Positions 1 to 35,020 of a DNA stretch of 64,000 nt are shown in pieces. The notes under the pieces are model-generated. The model was not told the origin of the DNA. It ran no database searches and saw nothing but the letters and a program-made list of their open reading frames with translations. A program made the translations under genes and the position numbers. Where the stretch lies: the NCBI RefSeq assembly GCF_016863395.1, contig NZ_BOOU01000017.1, forward strand, positions 1 through 64,000, read 5' to 3'. The first letter of the stretch is position 1; every line of letters begins with the position of its first letter. Origin of the DNA: Sphaerisporangium rufum (lineage in GTDB: Bacteria; Actinomycetota; Actinomycetes; Streptosporangiales; Streptosporangiaceae).

Positions 1-24
1 CTCCTGCAGGTCGAGAAGCGCCAT
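1..24 (-). CDS. Class III lanthipeptide precursor (LanA), first 8 codons only, cut by window edge
   Basis: Directly downstream of the LanKC synthetase a second minus-strand frame opens with ATG at 24 and reads M-A-L-L-D-L-Q-E before running off the window. Class III leader peptides characteristically begin with a short segment containing an (I/L)LDLQ-type motif, which the kinase domain of LanKC recognises, so these eight residues fit the expected precursor and its position. A very strong ribosome-binding site, AAGGAGGTGA, lies 5 nt upstream and overlaps the end of the synthetase gene (about 30-45). The core peptide with its Ser/Cys residues lies outside the window, so ring number and product cannot be predicted. 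Confidence rests on motif plus context; eight residues alone would not suffice. Confidence 0.75.
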
Positions 25-29
25 GGGTG

Positions 30-46
30 TCACCTCCTTCCTTGGC
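30..46 (-). promoter_or_regulatory. Strong ribosome-binding site of lanA
   Basis: The minus strand reads AAGGAAGGAGGTGA just before the lanA ATG at 24. It overlaps the stop codon of the synthetase, so precursor translation is strongly driven and tied to the same transcript. This fits the need for far more precursor than enzyme. Confidence 0.75.
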
Positions 47-2744
47 TCGACGGGTCCGCCGGCCCGGCGGGAATGCCGGGCGGGGAGATCATGGGGAGCC
101 GTACCGGCTCGTCGTGCAGCACGGTGCCGAGCGCGAGGAGCACGCCGGCGGTGCCGGTCGCCAGGTCCATCGAGAGCCGGAGCAGCTGGTTGCCGGGGAA
201 GGCCAGCCCGCCGCCGTACGGCATGGCGTGCCAGGCCAGCCGGGACACCTGGGCGGTCACCTCGGGGGAGGAGCGGCCGATCCCGGGGCGCAGCCCGGCG
301 GCCAGGGCGGCGATCATGCCGCTCCGCCCGGCGAACAGTCCCGACTGCACGTAGTAGTCCAGGGTGGCCACCGGGCCGATGCCGGCCAGCGCCTCGGCGA
401 AGCCCTCGTCGTCGCGGTGCTCGATGTGCCGGCGCAGCGCCAGCCCGATGCCCGCCGAGCCCTCGTCCAAGTAGGGGTTGGTCCGCCAGCCCTGCTGAAC
501 CTGGAGCTGGCCGTCGCCGCGACGGGTGCAGCGGCGCAGGTCCTGCCGCAGCGCCACGCCCGCGTGGTCCAGCAGCGAGCGGTCGCCGGTGGCCTCGTAG
601 GCCGACAGGAACAGCAGGGCGGGTCCGGACGACCCGCGCATCAGCCCGGCGTGCGGGTTCCGCCCGCCGCTGATCTCCGGGACGCTGTCGACGCTGCCGA
701 GCCGGTCGGCGACGATGCCGCTCACCTCCAGCGCGGCGTCGCGCAGCGAGCCGTCGCCGGTCAGCCGCCAGAAGTGCAGCAGGTTCAGCCCGATGCCGGC
801 CAGCCCGCCGTGCAGGCTCTGCCCGAGGTCCTGCCACTTCTCCCGCAGGCACAACGCGAGCAGGTCCAGGGCGTCCTCGTCGCGCCCGAGCGCCGCGAGG
901 GCGTAGGCGACGCCGTGCAGGCCGTCGTACAGGCCGAGCCCGGTTCCGGGCTTGGGGGCGAAGGCCCGCTCGCGCAGCCATTCCTCGTGCTCGGGGAACC
1001 GCCCGGCACCGGTGGCGGCCAGCGTGTACAGCACCCCGGCGGCGCCGTTGGCCAGGTTGAGCCCGCCGCCCGGCTGGAACTGCTGGACGTCACCGGGGAA
1101 GAGCCGGTCGTCGCGTTCGAGGGTGGCCGAGGCCAGGATCGCCCGCCGTGCGGCGTCCCGGACCTCGGGCCACGATGCCCGGCCGGGCACCGGCAGCTCC
1201 CGCATCAGCCGCAGCCCGTCCGGCCCGTCGGTGCGCGGCCGGGCCGCTGCCGGGCCGCGCACCGACGGCCCGGTGCCGGCCGCGGGCGCCGCGGAACCGC
1301 CGTCCCCGGTCGCGGCGCCCGGACCGGTGCCCTCGCCAGTGCCGAGGATCGTGCGCACCGCGGCGTCGACGACCTCGCGCGGCACCGGGAAGGTCTCCCG
1401 GACCAGCTCGGCCAGGTGCGTCACCTTGGCCCGGTGCAGCGGGATCAGCACCGTCGACATGGGTGCGAACAGCGCCAGGTGCAGGCAGGCCAGGGCGTAC
1501 CGGTCGGCCGCCACGCCGGTGCGGTCCGGCGGCGGGCCGAACCCCGGATGGGCCAGCGCCGGCCGGGCGTTGGCGTCGGCCAGGGTGGCCACCTCGAAGT
1601 CGATCAGCACCACCCGGTCCCCGTCCACCAGCACGTTGAACGGGTGCAGGTCGCCGAAGACCACCCCCCGCTCGTGCAGCGAGGTGACGGCCCGATCGAC
1701 GCGCTCCAGCATGTCGAGCGCCCACTCGGTGTACTCGGCGGCGTCCTCGGGGGTGATGACCGCCCGGGTGAGCGGGTGGCGGTGGATGGACTCCGCGCTG
1801 AGCGTCCGCCCGTCGATGAACTCCTGCACCATGAAGTGGTGGTCGCCGAGCGTGAAGTAGTCGTGCAGCGCCGGCACCGCGGGCAGGCCGGACAGCCGGC
1901 GCAGGATGTCGGCCTCGTGCGCCAGCCGGGACACCGCGTCGCGGCCCACCGCGTCCAGCCCGGCGTGCGGGCGGGCTTCCTTCAGCACCACCGAGCGCCC
2001 GGTCCGGGTGTCGCGCGCCTGGTAGACGCCGCCGCCGTTGGAGAAGTGCAGCACCCGCTCGATCTCGTACGGCAGGCCGGCCATCGTCACCGCGTTGCGG
2101 GCCGCCAGGTGCGGCTCCAGGAACGCGGGCAGGGTGACCCACGGCGGAGGCGAGAAGGACGGGCCGCGCCGGTCGGGCACCAGGGTGCCGGCGGGGTCCT
2201 CGATGGCGAGCACCCGCTCGCGGCCGGTGGTCAGGCAGTAGCGCTCGGCGAACCCGCCGTACCGCACGAAGAGCGGGCCCTCGCCGATCCGCAGATCGCT
2301 GAGGATGTACGGACCGCGCACGCCGTGCAGCAGCGCGTCGAGCTCCTTGACCACCAGCTCGAACTGGTCCTCGTCGGCGGGGTAGACGGTGACGAGCTTG
2401 CCGCTGCTGCCCCGGTCGGCGTACTTGGAGTTGAGCATGGTGACCACGCGCGGCCCGCGCAGGAACTTGAAGCTGATCCGGTTGGCGGTGCAGTAGTCCC
2501 ACACGATGCGCAGGGTGCGCTCGGCGTCGTCCAGGCAGGCCGAGATGTGGATCTTCCAGCCCTGGGTGGGCAGCGAGCGGTCCGCCGGCCCGTAGTGCAG
2601 CCAGGTGTCGGTGGCACGATGTTCCCACCCGGGGGGAACTTTCTGCTCCGCAGTAGCAAAATCCGGATGCTTGGCGCGCTGGTTGTCAAGGGAGTCGTAA
2701 AACGCCGGATCGGCTAGGCAGTAGATCTCGTACCTGTCGATCAC
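30..2744 (-). CDS. Class III lanthipeptide synthetase (LanKC / RamC-like)
   Basis: Three-domain enzyme of 904 residues, the usual size for the family. It phosphorylates Ser/Thr of a precursor, eliminates phosphate to give dehydro-amino acids, and cyclises Cys onto them. The N-terminal ~210 residues are the lyase-type region, opening with the typical R-Y-E-x-Y-C-L-A-D-P-x-F-Y-D-S. A Ser/Thr-kinase domain follows (~225-450), with FGDLHPFNVLV as catalytic loop and LIDFE as the DFG equivalent. The C-terminal half is LanC-like (LYDGLHGVAYAL, LHGGLAGIG, DEGSAGIGLAL). The Cys-Cys-His zinc ligands of class I, II and IV cyclases are absent, which places it in class III rather than IV. A ~50-residue Gly/Ala/Pro linker separates kinase and cyclase. 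The start is GTG at 2744 behind GGGGAG. The precursor start lies immediately downstream; exporter genes, if any, are beyond the left edge. Confidence 0.95.
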   Translation of the reverse strand: MIDRYEIYCLADPAFYDSLDNQRAKHPDFATAEQKVPPGWEHRATDTWLHYGPADRSLPTQGWKIHISACLDDAERTLRIVWDYCTANRISFKFLRGPRVVTMLNSKYADRGSSGKLVTVYPADEDQFELVVKELDALLHGVRGPYILSDLRIGEGPLFVRYGGFAERYCLTTGRERVLAIEDPAGTLVPDRRGPSFSPPPWVTLPAFLEPHLAARNAVTMAGLPYEIERVLHFSNGGGVYQARDTRTGRSVVLKEARPHAGLDAVGRDAVSRLAHEADILRRLSGLPAVPALHDYFTLGDHHFMVQEFIDGRTLSAESIHRHPLTRAVITPEDAAEYTEWALDMLERVDRAVTSLHERGVVFGDLHPFNVLVDGDRVVLIDFEVATLADANARPALAHPGFGPPPDRTGVAADRYALACLHLALFAPMSTVLIPLHRAKVTHLAELVRETFPVPREVVDAAVRTILGTGEGTGPGAATGDGGSAAPAAGTGPSVRGPAAARPRTDGPDGLRLMRELPVPGRASWPEVRDAARRAILASATLERDDRLFPGDVQQFQPGGGLNLANGAAGVLYTLAATGAGRFPEHEEWLRERAFAPKPGTGLGLYDGLHGVAYALAALGRDEDALDLLALCLREKWQDLGQSLHGGLAGIGLNLLHFWRLTGDGSLRDAALEVSGIVADRLGSVDSVPEISGGRNPHAGLMRGSSGPALLFLSAYEATGDRSLLDHAGVALRQDLRRCTRRGDGQLQVQQGWRTNPYLDEGSAGIGLALRRHIEHRDDEGFAEALAGIGPVATLDYYVQSGLFAGRSGMIAALAAGLRPGIGRSSPEVTAQVSRLAWHAMPYGGGLAFPGNQLLRLSMDLATGTAGVLLALGTVLHDEPVRLPMISPPGIPAGPADPSSQGRR

Positions 2745-5171: not shown

Positions 5172-7178
5172 ATGGAGGAGGGCCCACCGTTGGCCGGTTC
5201 CGCCGATCTCAGCCTGCTTCGCGCAGAGGCGCACAGCCCGTCGTACTTCTCGCTGCTGCGGGGGGCGTCGGGCCTCCAGGGCGCTCCGGTGGACTTCTGC
5301 ATCCCCTGCAACCCGTACTTCCCCACGCCGGAGATGTTCGACGTGCTGCAGCGGAACATCACCACGATCCTCAAGTACTACCCCAGCGACACCGGGCCGA
5401 TCACCTCCCAGCTCTGCTCGATCCTCGGGCTGAAATCGCAGACCGTCGTCATGGGCAACGGATCCACCGAGCTGATCACCTGGATCGACCACCTGCTGGT
5501 CAAGGAGAGCCTCGCCATCCCCATCCCGACCTTCGGCCGCTGGACCGACCAGCCGCTGGAGACCGGCAAGCGGGTGGACATGTTCCGGTTGCCCGAGGCA
5601 CAGGGCTTCGCGCTGGACGTGGAGTCGTACGTGCGGTTCGTCCGGGCCCGCGGCAGCCGGGTCGCGGTCATCTGCAACCCCAACAACCCCGACGGGGGCT
5701 ACCTGCCCCGCCGGCAGGTGATCCAGCTGCTGGACGAGCTGGCCGGCCTGGACCTGGTGATCGTGGACGAGTCGTTCATCGACTTCGTGGACTGCGAGCC
5801 GGAGCCGAGCGTCGCCGACGAGGCCGCCATCCGGCACAACGTGATCGTGCTCAAGAGCCTCGGCAAGAACTTCGGCCTGCACGGCATCCGCTTCGGCTAC
5901 CTGGTCGCCAATCCCGCACTGGCCGGCACCGTCCGCCGCATGTTGCCCAAGTGGAACCTCAACTCCTTCGCCGAGTCGGTGATCTTCATGCTGGGCGAGC
6001 ACATGCACGACTACCAGCGCAGCCTGCGGCTGCTGGCCGCCGACCGCCGGTCGATGTTCCAGCAGCTGTCCGCGCTGCCGGGGCTCACCGTCTTCCCCTC
6101 CCAGGGCAACTTCATCATGGTCCGGCTGCCGGACGGCAAGGACGGCCGGGCGCTGCGCGACTACCTGTTCAGCGAGCACAACGTCTTCGTGCGCGAGTGC
6201 GGCAACAAGCTGGGGTCCACCAGCGCGTTCCTGCGGCTGGTGGTCCGCCCGCAGCAGGACGTGCAGCGGCTGGTCGACGGCATGCAGGCCTTCCTGCTCG
6301 CCGGCGGTCCGGACGCCGGCGTGCCCGCGCGCCGCGCGGTGAGCGCCTACCAGGCGCCCGCCGGCCCGGCCCCGGCCGCCTACTCGCCGCCGGCCGCCCC
6401 CTACCAGCCTGCCGCTCCGGCCGCGTATTCTCCGCCGCCTGCCGCTCCGGCCGCCTATCCGCCGCCCGCGGCGCCGGCCGCCTACTCGCCGCCGGCCGCC
6501 CCCGCCGCCTACCAGCCTGCCGCTCCGGCCGCCTACTCCCCGCCGCCGGCCGCGCCGGCCGGCTACGAGATGCCGGCGACCGTGGCGGCGCCGTCCTACC
6601 GGACATCCCCCTACCAGGAGGAGTCGTACATCATGCCGGCCACCCGCGACCGGGAGCCGGTCGACCACCTGGACGCCCCGCAAGCCCATCCCGCCGGGCA
6701 GCGGGTCGGCGCCTCGCCTCCGGCCCGCCGCGGCGAGCCCGCCGCGCACCGGACGGGGAGCGCCGGCTCCGCCGGTCACCGTGCCGCATCCGCAGCATCC
6801 GCAGCACCCGCGGCGTCCACGGCGTCCACGGCGAGCGCCCGCCCGGCGGAGAACCGGTCCGGCGCCGGCGGCCGGTCGGCGGGCCGGGCCCAGATCCGGT
6901 CCGATGGCCGGCGGGCGGAGGGCTCCGCGACGGTCGCCTCGGCGGCGTATCTCGGCGAGGCCTCCGGCCGGTCGAGCGGCCGGCGGCCGTCGTACGAGCG
7001 GGCCGAGGCGCCGCCGGCGGCCGACCGGCACGAGGACCCGTTCGTGGTCGGCGGCGACGACCCGCGGCACGGCCGGCTGGACCCGCTGGACACCTCGACG
7101 ATCATCTTCGACAACAACACCGGCCCGTTCAGCGCGGTCTCCGACGCCATCCGCGGCTACCGCGCCGGCAGTTCCTGA
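5172..7178 (+). CDS. PLP-dependent class I/II aminotransferase with a ~270-residue low-complexity C-terminal extension
   Basis: Residues ~1-385 form a fold-type I aminotransferase related to histidinol-phosphate aminotransferase/CobC. It has the [12 protein letters not shown] motif, the VDESFIDF segment with the cofactor Asp, and the Schiff-base lysine in [15 protein letters not shown]. The tail from ~390 is not enzyme: it opens with repeats of A-Y-(S/Q)-P-P-A-A-P-A type (about 6350-6550), continues Ala/Ser/Arg-rich, and ends with a short ordered-looking [21 protein letters not shown] tail of this length is odd for the family and may be an interaction region. The amino-acid substrate is unknown. 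Polyphosphate glucokinase follows after 76 nt on the same strand. Confidence 0.85.
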
Positions 7179-14974: not shown

Positions 14975-15645
14975 CCGGCGCCGCGGCGATCCGCGTGCTG
15001 GTCGTGGACGACCAGCAGATCGTCCGGGAGGGCCTGGTGGCCCTGCTCGGGCTGATGGACGGCGTCGAGGTCGCCGGCGCGGCCGGCGACGGCGAGGGGG
15101 CACTCCGGCTGCTGGCGGAGACCTCCGCCGACGTCGTGCTCATGGACCTGCGGATGCCGGTGATGGACGGGGTGGCGGCCACCCGGCACATCGCCCGGCG
15201 GCACCCGAAGGTGGCGGTGCTGGTCCTGACCACCTACGCCGACGACGACTCGATCGCGGACGCCCTGCGGTCCGGTGCCCGCGGCTATCTGACCAAGGAC
15301 GCCGGCCGGGCCGAGATCGCGGCCGCGCTGCGCGCCACCGCCTCCGGCCAGTCCACCTTCTCCGGCGCCGTCTCCCGGCGCCTGGTGGCGGCCATGCTGA
15401 GGCCGGACCCGCGCCACCCGGTCCCGCCGGAGCGCTGGGGCAACCCCGACGGGCTCACCCCCCGGGAGGCCGAGATCCTGAAGCTCATCGCGGGCGGCAT
15501 GAGCAACCAGCAGATCGCCGGGGCGCTGTTCATCGGCGAGTCGACGGTCAAGACGCACATCAACCACGCCTTCGCCAAGATCGGGGCGCGCGGCCGCAGC
15601 GACGCGACCCGCTACGTCTACCGGCACGGGCTGGCCGAGGCGTGA
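14971..15645 (+). CDS. NarL/LuxR-family response regulator
   Basis: A 224-residue two-domain regulator. The receiver domain (~6-125) has the DD pair in LVVDDQQIV, phosphoacceptor Asp59 in LMDLRMPVMDG and the conserved Lys in YLTKDAG. A LuxR-type helix-turn-helix (~160-220, LTPREAEILKLIAGGMSNQQIA, then STVKTHINHAFAKIGARGR) binds DNA. The GTG start overlaps the kinase stop by 4 nt. Targets are unknown; the next gene downstream is an unrelated HAD phosphatase. Confidence 0.93.
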   Translation: MTGAAAIRVLVVDDQQIVREGLVALLGLMDGVEVAGAAGDGEGALRLLAETSADVVLMDLRMPVMDGVAATRHIARRHPKVAVLVLTTYADDDSIADALRSGARGYLTKDAGRAEIAAALRATASGQSTFSGAVSRRLVAAMLRPDPRHPVPPERWGNPDGLTPREAEILKLIAGGMSNQQIAGALFIGESTVKTHINHAFAKIGARGRSDATRYVYRHGLAEA

Positions 15646-31598: not shown

Positions 31599-32444
31599 TC
31601 AGGACACGACGTCCTTGCCGCGGAAGCGGCGGAACGCCACCGCCACCAGGATCACCGCGTAGGTCACCGACAGCGACGCCCCCTTGATCATGCCGCTCCA
31701 GTCGAGCTCCGGGGCCAGTGCGTCCAGCCAGGCGGTGCTCCAGAACGTCGGCAGGAACTCGCGCGCCGCGCCGAGCGCCTCCACCGCCTGCACGATGTTG
31801 CTCACGATGACCAGCCCGACGGCGCCGCCGACCGCGCCGAGCGGCGAATCGGTGCTCACCGACAGCAGGAAGGCCAGCGCCGCCACCACCAGCTGGCTGA
31901 TCATCACGTATCCGATCACGATGGCGAACCGGGGCAGCACGGTGGCCGCGTCCACGCCCTCGCCGGTGCCCGGCAGCCGGATGTCGTTCCACCCGAACGC
32001 CAGGGTGCCGGCCAGCAACGCCATCACCGGCACCATGATCACCGAGGCCGCCGAGCAGGCCAGCGCCACGATCAGCTTCTGCCGCAGCAGCCGGGCGCGC
32101 GGCACCGGCGCGGCCAGCAGGTAGCGCAGCGACGACCAGTTCGCCTCGCCGGCGACGGTGTCCCCGCAGAACAACGCCACGGCCACCACCATGAGCAGCG
32201 TCGCCGACACCGACAGCGTGAACGCCGCGAAGTTCAGCCCGCCCTGGGTCGCCAGGTCGGAGATGCGCAGCGAGCCGGCCTGCGAGGGCGACCGGCCGAC
32301 CAGGAAGGCCACCACCAGCACCCACGGCAGCGCCAGCAGCACGCCGAACATCACCATGGTGCGGCGCCGGCGGAGCTGGCGCGCGAACTCCACCCGCAGC
32401 GGCAGCGTGCGCCCGGGGGAGTAGGACTGGGTCGCGGCCGTCAC
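31599..32444 (-). CDS. ABC transporter permease (ABC-2 type)
   Basis: A 281-residue membrane protein with six hydrophobic helices. It has the typical ABC-2 export-permease layout: a short cytoplasmic head with RRRRTM, a large first loop, and the GDTVAGEANWSSLRYLLAAPVPR segment between helices 2 and 3, which is the hallmark of this permease family. The GTG start overlaps the stop of the hydrolase-ATPase gene (GTGA). The partner ATPase is therefore the C-terminal domain of that fusion. Substrate is unknown. Confidence 0.88.
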   Translation of the reverse strand: MTAATQSYSPGRTLPLRVEFARQLRRRRTMVMFGVLLALPWVLVVAFLVGRSPSQAGSLRISDLATQGGLNFAAFTLSVSATLLMVVAVALFCGDTVAGEANWSSLRYLLAAPVPRARLLRQKLIVALACSAASVIMVPVMALLAGTLAFGWNDIRLPGTGEGVDAATVLPRFAIVIGYVMISQLVVAALAFLLSVSTDSPLGAVGGAVGLVIVSNIVQAVEALGAAREFLPTFWSTAWLDALAPELDWSGMIKGASLSVTYAVILVAVAFRRFRGKDVVS

Positions 32445-35020
32445 GCCTTGTCTCCGATCAGTTCCAGGAAGACGTCCTCCAGACGCCCCGACGATCCGTT
32501 GCCCCGCGTCGCCCGGCCGAGCAGGTCGCCGACCGGGCCGGCCGCCACCAGGCGCCCCCGGTTCATCACGACGACGTGGCCGCAGGTCTGCTCGACCTCG
32601 GCGAGCAGGTGGCTGGACACGATCACCGTGCGCCCGCGGGCGGCGTACCGGATCAGCACCCGGCGCATCTCGGCGATCTGCGGCGGATCCAGGCCGTTGG
32701 TGGGCTCGTCCAGCACCAGCAGGTCGGGCAGCCCCAGCATGGCCTGCGCGATGGCCAGCCGCTGGCGCATGCCCTGCGAATAGGTGCGCACCGCGCGCTC
32801 CAGCGCCGCACCGAGCCCGGCGATCTCCAGCGCCTCGGCCAGGTGCGACTCCTCCGCCGGGCGGCCGGTGGCCCGCCAGTACAGCTCCAGGTTCTCCCGG
32901 CCGGACAGGTGCGGCAGGAAGCCGGGCCCCTCGACGAACGAGCCGAGCCGCGCCAGCACCGGCGCCCCCGGCGTCACCCGGTGGCCGAAGATCCGGATCT
33001 CCCCGGCGTCCGGGTGGATCAGGCCCATCATCATGCGCATCGTGGTGGTCTTGCCCGCGCCGTTCGGCCCGAGCAGGCCCAGCACCTGGCCCTGCTCGAC
33101 CCGGAACGACAGGTCGTCCACCGCCTTCTCCCCGTCGCGGTAGCGCTTGGTCAGCCCGGTGATCTGCAATGGCACTTCGGCCAGCTCCGGATCCGGCTCC
33201 TCCTCCCGGCGGGTGCGCCCGGCCAGCAGCAGCCCGGCGGCCACCGCCAGCGCCGCCAGCGGCAGCGCCCACGTCCACCAGGCCGGCCCGGCCGCGGCGG
33301 CCCGCAGCGACGGCACGACCGGCACCGAAAGCGCCGGCGCCGCCAGCCCGATCCGGTGCACCGCGCCCGCCACCGGCAGGGCGTACCCGAGGTCGGAGGT
33401 GGTGAGCACCACGCGCAGCCGGTGTCCCGCCTCGAACCGGTGGTCGATCGCGGGCAGCGCCACCGTGACCGGGGTGCCGGCCGCGGTGGCGGTGACCCGC
33501 AGCGGGGCCACCAGCCCCTGCGGCAGCGCCGGCCGGGCGCCGGCCACGTCGTACAGCTTGGCGAACAGCGTGACCTCGCCCTCGCCGTACACCTTCACCT
33601 GCACCGACGAGGCACCGGTCACCTCCAGCGGCGCGCCGAGCGGCGGCGACTGGAAGGCCGCGCTCTGGCCTGGCATGTCCAGCGCCAGGCCGGCGTCGCC
33701 GAGGTTGCCGAGCAGGCTCCCCACCCCCGGTACCGAGGAGATCCCCGCGGGCGCGCCGCCCGGCGGGGTGGCCACCTGCTGCTCGGGGCCGGCCAGCGGC
33801 ACCGTACGTCGCTCGGTCCCGGCGAGCCCGGCGTAGCGCGCGGTGGTCGCGTGCAGCTGGATCGGCCGCCGGGTGCCCGGATCGCGGCCGCCGTCCCGGG
33901 TGACGGTGAAGGCGTCCCCGGCCGGTGAGCCGTCCTTCTTCAGCCACCGGTCGAACCAGCGGGTGGTGCGCTCGGCGACCCAGTCCGGCTCGCCGCCGCC
34001 GTCATGGCCGCCGGCGAACCAGGCCACCTCCACCGGCGCGCCGGTGGCCGCGATGGCCCGGGCGTTGGCGTCGGCGTGCCCGAGCGGGAACAGCGAGTCG
34101 CGCTGGCCCTGGATCAGCAGGGTCGGCACCCGGATCCGGCCGGGAACCGAGACCGGGCTGGATCGGCGCAGCGTCTCCACCGCGCCCGCGCTCGCCCGGC
34201 CGCTCTCGGCGACCTCCTCGTACATCCGGCAGATCTCCGGCAGGAACCGGCCGCACCGCACGTCACCGGCCGCCGCGCCGGCACCGGCCCCGGGTGCCCC
34301 GGCTCCGGCTTCTCCTTCTTCCCCGCCGGCTCCCGCGGCGTCGTCGCCGCCCGGCGCGCCGAGACCGGCACCGGCCAGCGGCGACCCCGACCCCATGCCG
34401 AAGAACAGCCCGGCCCACATGCGCTTGAACACGCCCTGCTCCGGCCCCCGGCCGGTGGCGTCAGGGAACAGCGCGTCCGCCAGGTCATGCCAGGTGATCT
34501 GCGGCACGATCGCGTCGATCCGGCGGTCGTAGGCCGCCGCCATCAGGCTGATCGCGCCGCCGTAGGACCCGCCGGCCATGCCCAGCCGCGGGTCGCCGGG
34601 GCCGTCCAGCAACACCTCCGGCCGGCCGGCCACCCAGTCGATCAGCTGCCGGACGTCCTTGACCTCGTAGTCGGGGGAGTTCAGCGCGATCTGCCCGGTG
34701 GAGGCGCCGAAGCCGCGGGCCGACCAGGTCAGCACCGCGTACCCCTGGCCGGCCAGCCGTTCGGCCTCGGCGCGCACGCTGCGCTTGCTGCCGCCGAACC
34801 CGTGGGCCAGCAGCACCACCGGGGCCCGGCCGCCGCCCTCCGGCGGGAAGAAGGTGGCGTCCAGGGTGACCCGCTGGTCGTCGCGCGGCCCGTCCACCAC
34901 GGTGATCTTCCGGTCCAGCGCCCGGACGGGGGCCGAGGGCCACAGCACCCACGCCGCGACCCCGGCGACCAGCAACGCCACCATGGCGAACGCGACCGGC
35001 CGCCTCCCCGCGAATCTCAT
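32441..35020 (-). CDS. Fusion of a CocE/NonD-type alpha/beta hydrolase and an ABC transporter ATPase
   Basis: An 859-residue protein joining two usually separate activities. An N-terminal signal/anchor helix (~9-29) precedes an alpha/beta hydrolase of the X-Pro-dipeptidyl-peptidase/CocE (S15) group. The hydrolase has the nucleophile elbow GGSYGG (Ser near 150), an Asp in QGQRDSLFP, a His in AGGHDGG, and a Gly/Ala-rich insert (~225-250). The jelly-roll domain follows (~420-570). A second hydrophobic helix (~583-603) then leads to a complete ABC ATPase (~615-859: GPNGAGKTTTM, TYSQGMRQRLAIAQ, LLVLDEPTNGLD). The topology puts the hydrolase outside and the ATPase inside. No stop codon or frameshift separates the halves. 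The permease follows with overlap. Confidence 0.88.
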   Translation of the reverse strand: MRFAGRRPVAFAMVALLVAGVAAWVLWPSAPVRALDRKITVVDGPRDDQRVTLDATFFPPEGGGRAPVVLLAHGFGGSKRSVRAEAERLAGQGYAVLTWSARGFGASTGQIALNSPDYEVKDVRQLIDWVAGRPEVLLDGPGDPRLGMAGGSYGGAISLMAAAYDRRIDAIVPQITWHDLADALFPDATGRGPEQGVFKRMWAGLFFGMGSGSPLAGAGLGAPGGDDAAGAGGEEGEAGAGAPGAGAGAAAGDVRCGRFLPEICRMYEEVAESGRASAGAVETLRRSSPVSVPGRIRVPTLLIQGQRDSLFPLGHADANARAIAATGAPVEVAWFAGGHDGGGEPDWVAERTTRWFDRWLKKDGSPAGDAFTVTRDGGRDPGTRRPIQLHATTARYAGLAGTERRTVPLAGPEQQVATPPGGAPAGISSVPGVGSLLGNLGDAGLALDMPGQSAAFQSPPLGAPLEVTGASSVQVKVYGEGEVTLFAKLYDVAGARPALPQGLVAPLRVTATAAGTPVTVALPAIDHRFEAGHRLRVVLTTSDLGYALPVAGAVHRIGLAAPALSVPVVPSLRAAAAGPAWWTWALPLAALAVAAGLLLAGRTRREEEPDPELAEVPLQITGLTKRYRDGEKAVDDLSFRVEQGQVLGLLGPNGAGKTTTMRMMMGLIHPDAGEIRIFGHRVTPGAPVLARLGSFVEGPGFLPHLSGRENLELYWRATGRPAEESHLAEALEIAGLGAALERAVRTYSQGMRQRLAIAQAMLGLPDLLVLDEPTNGLDPPQIAEMRRVLIRYAARGRTVIVSSHLLAEVEQTCGHVVVMNRGRLVAAGPVGDLLGRATRGNGSSGRLEDVFLELIGDKA

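What the first reader, a model, noticed from the sequence alone, without database searches (positions are those of the whole stretch)
1..2744. Edge of a class III lanthipeptide system with the precursor leader just visible
The frame at 24 reads MALLDLQE with a strong ribosome-binding site overlapping the end of a LanKC lacking zinc ligands. Gene order synthetase then precursor, and the LDLQ leader motif, match RamC/RamS-type systems whose products act as surfactant morphogens or have other activities. The core peptide lies outside the window, so a new product is possible.
Basis: partly seen in the sequence, partly recalled or inferred. Interest (0 to 1): 0.7.

Follow-up and report, generated by a model that had tools for sequence, protein, structure and literature searches.

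The report
SapB-type lanthipeptide locus at contig edge
The window begins inside an ordinary gene set for making a small ring-bearing peptide of the SapB/AmfS kind, which in related soil bacteria helps hyphae grow into the air; the peptide gene itself falls in an assembly gap, and close relatives show what it probably looks like.

Summary
Window 30-2744 (-) encodes a 904-aa class III synthetase LanKC (NCBIfam NF038151, 1102 bits). A Shine-Dalgarno inside its last codons precedes an ATG at 24 reading MALLDLQE. Window base 1 is the end of contig C17, so the core peptide cannot be read.

The 9 other genomes of the genus with a strong synthetase match (of 11 held, own included) have 2-3 tandem precursors at that spot: MALLDLQ, a Gly-rich spacer (usually with His), a Ser/Cys core. 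All 36 precursors tested match Pfam RamS and NCBIfam SapB/AmfS at E 1e-5 or better. The own genome's contig C16 ends with a conserved hairpin followed by two ABC transporter genes. The order is therefore lanKC - lanA - lanT1 - lanT2, as in ramCSAB. Near-identical tandem copies (83-100% DNA identity) probably explain the assembly break.

This is a new member of a known, large family (more than 4,000 sequences according to PMC13380574). Most likely product: an exported amphipathic morphogen for aerial growth. The core of this strain remains unread. Interest is low.

The parts
30..2744 (-). class III lanthipeptide synthetase LanKC (RamC-like), 904 aa, GTG start, TGA stop at 32-30
   Evidence: relatives 43-77% identical, 72-81% in the genus
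1..24 (-). first 8 codons (MALLDLQE) of the first precursor gene lanA; the rest lies beyond the contig end
   Evidence: only copy of this 24-mer in the assembly with up to 3 mismatches
33..39 (-). Shine-Dalgarno AAGGAGG for lanA, inside the last codons of lanKC
   Evidence: read directly; similar purine-rich sites before the first precursor in genus-mates

Best explanation
This is the left end of a SapB/AmfS-family class III lanthipeptide locus, lanKC - lanA1 (-lanA2, perhaps more) - lanT1 - lanT2. LanKC binds the LLDLQ helix of the leader, phosphorylates and eliminates Ser/Thr in the core, and closes two thioether rings per peptide without zinc (lanthionine or labionin, at Ser-x2-Ser/Thr-x2-3-Cys motifs). 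Two ABC transporter proteins carry the product out, proteases encoded elsewhere trim the leader, and the amphipathic two-ring peptide acts as a surface-active morphogen for aerial hyphae. Shown here: synthetase, leader start, ribosome-binding site, transporter genes on the neighbouring contig, precursor family in close relatives. Inferred from the families: chemistry, export, trimming, morphogen role (about 0.6 for the morphogen role itself).
For: LanKC equivalog; leader MALLDLQE with Shine-Dalgarno. 9 of 9 other genomes of the genus with a strong synthetase match carry 2-3 precursors immediately downstream, core S[NSQ]LSL[LV]GCTPHENSSLS[IL][LI]CG; one second copy is cut by a contig end. 23 of 29 loci have at least one M[AVTI]LLDLQ precursor there and 18 of 29 have two or three. 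36 of 36 precursors match PF19402 RamS and NF033212 SapB/AmfS at E 1e-5 or better. Contig C16 of the same genome ends with a hairpin that relatives have after their last precursor, then two ABC transporter genes, the first 75% identical to that of a relative. Known ram order ramC-ramS-two transporters-ramR (PMC4255298, passages).
Against: The core of this strain is not assembled: the precursor profile finds only a chance-level hit in the own genome, E 0.9. No RamR-like LuxR gene is adjacent: no GerE domain on C16, one on C17 at 15451-15615 (150 of 160 candidates scored); a review found ramR only in streptomycetes (PMC4255298, passages). ThurKC's proposed base Asp771 and its Asp667 align with Ala805 and Arg703 (sequence alignment only). 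6 of the 29 loci gave no such precursor. The second transporter shows only the ATPase domain in Pfam. The morphogen role outside Streptomyces was not tested.
Confidence: 0.88

Rival explanations
1. The same locus type, but the product is not mainly a morphogen: an antimicrobial, antiviral or signalling class III peptide (recalled: labyrinthopeptin- or NAI-112-like activities).
For: Synthetases grouped with RamC/AmfT make Lan-only, Lab-only and mixed products (PMC13380574, passages). A SAM methyltransferase gene (Methyltransf_19) lies on C16 at 843-1733, about 3.7 kb beyond the second transporter gene; whether it belongs to the locus is unknown.
Against: Precursors fit the RamS and SapB/AmfS models in 36 of 36 cases and the ram gene order is kept. 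Apart from that methyltransferase, no tailoring or resistance gene was recognised among the gene products scanned nearby (5 on C16 and 5 in the window; not every gene model was scanned).
Confidence: 0.25
2. In this strain the precursor is defective, or the contig end is a misjoined or degenerate remnant, so no product is made.
For: No complete precursor is found in the assembly.
Against: Intact synthetase, clear Shine-Dalgarno, conserved leader start, open transporter genes and the hairpin on C16. The break is explained by tandem near-identical copies: copies within a genome are 83-100% identical, and genus-mate G010 also breaks at this spot.
Confidence: 0.04
3. The Thr-Pro-His stretch between the two ring motifs is cross-linked (histidinobutyrine, as in noursin), making a metal-binding tricyclic peptide.
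For: TPHENSS is kept in the genus precursors and in most Microbispora-type precursors; one of 36 precursors touches the noursin model, weakly (E 0.025).
Against: In noursin the cross-linked Thr8 and His11 lie within the labionin ring span (residues 3-15), and LanKC-Hbt enzymes form a separate cluster (PMC10206099, passages). Sphaerimonospora mesophila has Val for Thr, and the Streptosporangium-type precursors replace the whole stretch.
Confidence: 0.02

Closest known systems
ramCSAB (SapB, Streptomyces coelicolor) and amfTSAB (AmfS, S. griseus)
   Same: Gene order synthetase - precursor - two ABC transporters; RamS-family precursor in relatives; class III synthetase.
   Different: Two or three tandem precursor genes in most relatives instead of one; a Gly-rich, often His-bearing spacer between leader and core; no adjacent ramR found; core S[NSQ]LSL[LV]GCTPHENSSLS[IL][LI]CG in genus-mates.
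durhapeptin locus (Streptomyces durhamensis, PMC13380574, passages)
   Same: SapB/AmfS-family precursor with a RamC/AmfT-grouped synthetase and transporter genes.
   Different: A response-regulator gene lies in the cluster; from Streptomyces; its core was not compared here.
ThurKC (Bacillus thuringiensis class III synthetase, PDB 8sao/8sap/8sam; PMC10604976, passages)
   Same: Lyase-kinase-cyclase architecture, metal-free cyclase, Phe at the NisC Cys330 position.
   Different: Asp771 (proposed base) is Ala805 and Ser726 is Asp760 in the window protein.

Membership tests
class III lanthipeptide synthetase (LanKC) | lyase + Ser/Thr kinase + LanC-like domains, class III model above cut-off | tested here: met
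   NF038151 1102 bits against 575; RamC_N, Pkinase; LANC_like 23.6 against 23.2
class III lanthipeptide synthetase (LanKC) | no zinc ligands in the cyclase domain | tested here: met
   Asp760/Phe804/Ala805 at the ligand positions, by sequence alignment
SapB/AmfS-family precursor | leader with an LxLQ-type motif directly beside the synthetase | tested here: met
   MALLDLQE at 24-1 (-) with Shine-Dalgarno
SapB/AmfS-family precursor | core with two Ser-x2-Ser/Thr-x2-3-Cys motifs | tested here: inconclusive
   Not readable in this genome; present in 9 of 9 genus-mates with a strong synthetase match, one second copy cut by a contig end; 36 of 36 relatives match PF19402 and NF033212
ram/amf-type gene cluster | two ABC transporter genes after the precursor | tested here: met
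   G000:C16:7165-8982 and 5411-7168 (-), both ABC_tran; only the first also matches ABC_membrane. On a separate contig, joined by inference.
ram/amf-type gene cluster | adjacent ramR response regulator | tested here: not met
   no GerE domain on C16; on C17 one at 15451-15615; a review reports ramR only in streptomycetes, so this marks the Streptomyces cluster rather than the peptide family
morphogenetic peptide (SapB-like function) | lanthionine/labionin product that induces aerial hyphae | not testable with these tools
   needs MS and a bald-mutant assay

The most novel reading that the evidence does not exclude
The Gly/His-rich spacer is functional in the product. Cleavage after the leader Pro (which precedes GGH in 29 of 68 distinct precursors) would leave an amino-terminal Gly-Gly-His, a copper/nickel-binding tripeptide (recalled chemistry), so that these tandem peptides would be metal-binding morphogens. 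Against it: in the other 39 of 68 the His stands elsewhere or is missing, both precursors of G007 lack the Pro, cleavage after the Pro is not shown, and the core of this strain is unread.
Probability: 0.03. Interest if true: 0.55.

Novelty: new member of a known kind. Interest (0 to 1): 0.17.

Why it matters
It supports the view that the SapB-type system is common outside Streptomyces: a precursor match at E 0.001 or better was found in 155 of 345 genomes searched, some of them only weak. It also shows a practical trap: tandem near-identical precursor genes can break short-read assemblies exactly at the product gene, so genome mining misses the peptide while keeping its enzyme. Clade-specific cores and Gly/His spacers are cheap targets for heterologous expression.

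Tried and rejected
Long non-lanthipeptide gene from 24: rejected, because genus-mates have 39-44 codon precursors there. Precursor elsewhere in the own genome: the 110-base and 24-mer searches found only C17's own start, and the profile found one chance-level hit at E 0.9. Double-glycine cleavage by a peptidase-bearing exporter: no peptidase domain was found in the two transporter proteins, so it is not supported. Histidinobutyrine cross-link: see rivals. Concerted evolution of the tandem copies: within-genome identity exceeds the nearest same-copy relative in some genomes and not in others, so no claim is made.

Literature: searches returned 3, 1, 3, 0, 0 and 2 papers of the held library. Passages were read in PMC12187853, PMC4709908, PMC6165096, PMC9290621 and PMC4255298; none of these passages describes a class III peptide of Sphaerisporangium or Microbispora. 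PMC3992017, PMC9962454, PMC8120280 and PMC3178909 were seen only in the listings. So absence from print is not shown, and subscription journals are mostly not held.

Rows dropped: alignment A1 holds 36 peptides from 21 of the 29 loci; L030-L036 and L038 were left out as divergent or unclear, and further copies found later were not added. One search used 67 loci (L012-L038, L061-L100); 62 gave at least one precursor; some genomes appear twice, so only distinct sequences (68) are counted, divergent ones included. In the motif tally, at least one of my two patterns failed in 15 of 36 rows; the L033 synthetase was not recovered, and L025 only as a short piece of doubtful frame. One search aligned the C16 end with 14 loci that I chose; near-duplicates (L064, L065) were kept.

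Full report
What was checked. The reverse strand from base 24 reads ATG GCG CTT CTC GAC CTG CAG GAG (MALLDLQE) and leaves the window at base 1. AAGGAGG (39-33) lies eight bases upstream, inside the last codons of the preceding ORF, whose TGA is at 32-30. That ORF, 2744-30, is a 904-aa LanKC: NF038151 1102 bits against a cut-off of 575, RamC_N, kinase, and LANC_like just over its cut-off. The window is G000:C17:1-64000, so base 1 is a contig end. No other copy of the first 110 bases (E 0.001) or 24 bases (3 mismatches) was found in the 7.8-Mb, 173-contig assembly.

Zinc ligands. Aligned with ThurKC, and with the residue correspondence given in PMC10604976 (passages; a shift of three between paper numbers and chain index inferred by me), the three NisC zinc ligands correspond to Asp760, Phe804 and Ala805. 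The zinc-less reading is confirmed at this level. ThurKC's Asp771, proposed there as a base, is Ala here, and Asp667 aligns with Arg703; Ser608 is kept. These are sequence alignments only.

What lies beyond the edge. Twenty-nine loci in named genomes encode relatives 43-77% identical. Just downstream of the synthetase, 23 of the 29 have at least one small ORF starting M[AVTI]LLDLQ, and 18 of the 29 have two or three; the other 6 do not have that leader start there. In the genus of the window, 10 of 11 genomes (the own one included) have the synthetase at E 1e-150 or better. G009 has no match at that threshold and no precursor match at E 0.001. The 9 others with the synthetase have two or three precursors right after it, for example MALLDLQEMELPGGHGGGGSNLSLVGCTPHENSSLSILCG; one second copy, in G010, is cut by that genome's own contig end. 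The 36 peptides of alignment A1 all match PF19402 RamS and NF033212 SapB/AmfS at E 1e-5 or better, and 25 of 36 also match the class III model NF038159 at that E-value. In the order-level search, 155 of 345 genomes had a precursor match at E 0.001 or better, some only weakly (E 1e-6 to 1e-3), with up to four matches per genome; the own genome had none. The genomes listed there were all of the same genus or family.

The missing half. A relative's first transporter protein finds its 75% identical counterpart at G000:C16:7204-8949. C16 is 9,120 bases long. Its right end carries, in the direction of transcription, a 13-bp-stem hairpin at about 9054-9022 and then two ABC transporter genes, 8982-7165 and 7168-5411; only the first also matches the ABC membrane domain in Pfam. 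A like hairpin follows the last precursor in the 14 relatives aligned; transporter-like ORFs beyond it were looked at only in L010. Across the 15 sequences, 13 pairs are predicted, four of them with changes on both sides that keep the pair, and two with two sequences each that break it; near-duplicate rows (L064, L065) are included. So C16 end - gap - C17 start is inferred to be one locus read leftwards, with the precursor gene or genes in the gap. Tandem copies within a genome are 83-100% identical in DNA, which is the likely cause of the break. G010 breaks at the same spot, and in G304 and G307 precursor copies lie within about 220 bases of a contig start.

How it most likely works. By the class III scheme (PMC10604976, passages), LanKC binds the leader helix, phosphorylates and eliminates core Ser/Thr, and closes thioether rings without metal. 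The core in relatives has two Ser-x2-Ser/Thr-x2-3-Cys motifs, so two rings (lanthionine or labionin) are expected; ring type is hard to predict from the synthetase (PMC13380574, passages). The two ABC proteins are taken to export the peptide. No leader protease is seen among the gene products scanned nearby (not every gene), and PMC7268733 notes that actinobacterial class III clusters usually lack one (passages). By analogy with SapB, AmfS and durhapeptin, the peptide probably aids the rise of aerial hyphae. The Gly/His-rich spacer is probably a flexible tether; this is inference.

Comparison. PMC4255298 (passages) describes ramC, ramS, two transporter genes and ramR in S. coelicolor, with similar clusters sporadically in other complex genera and ramR only in streptomycetes. 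The window's locus matches that order without ramR: the only GerE domain found on C17 is at 15451-15615, and none is on C16. PMC13380574 gives more than 4,000 SapB/AmfS-family sequences (passages). The finding is therefore right, and ordinary: a new member of a known kind, with clade-level variations (tandem precursors, Gly/His spacer, TPHENSS inter-ring stretch).

The family matches were repeated at E 1e-5 (the first runs had allowed E 1), tandem copies were recounted, and three more papers were looked into.

Noticed in passing
G000:C16 about 9054-9022 (-) (L061): Conserved, covarying hairpin after the last precursor and before the first transporter gene in this genome, with a like hairpin in the 14 relatives aligned; possibly an attenuator that keeps precursor mRNA above transporter mRNA.
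   Followed up: partly
window 330-335 and 465-467 (-), LanKC residues 804-805 and 760: ThurKC's proposed base Asp771 is Ala805 here, while the Ser726 position holds Asp760; the Ala plus Asp combination was found in 19 of 36 synthetases, window included, with at least one pattern failing in 15 of 36.
   Followed up: partly
precursors in L012-L038 and L061-L100: Spacer between leader Pro and core is mostly Gly-rich with His at a varying place: GGH directly after Pro in 29 of 68 distinct precursors, no His scored in 17 of 68.
   Followed up: partly
G010:C1 end and C23:1-114; G304:C36 and C55; G307:C185: Other assemblies also have precursor copies at or near contig ends, so the product gene of this family may often be missing from short-read genomes.
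   Followed up: no
G000:C16:843-1733 (-) (L061): SAM methyltransferase gene (Methyltransf_19) about 3.7 kb beyond the second transporter gene; unclear whether it has to do with the peptide.
   Followed up: no
window 15451-15615 (+): A LuxR-type (GerE) DNA-binding domain, the only one found on this contig, 12.7 kb upstream of lanKC.
   Followed up: no
window 32441-35020 (-): One 859-aa frame carries an X-Pro dipeptidyl-peptidase (S15, PepX_C) part and an ABC ATPase part; it may be a fusion worth a look.
   Followed up: no
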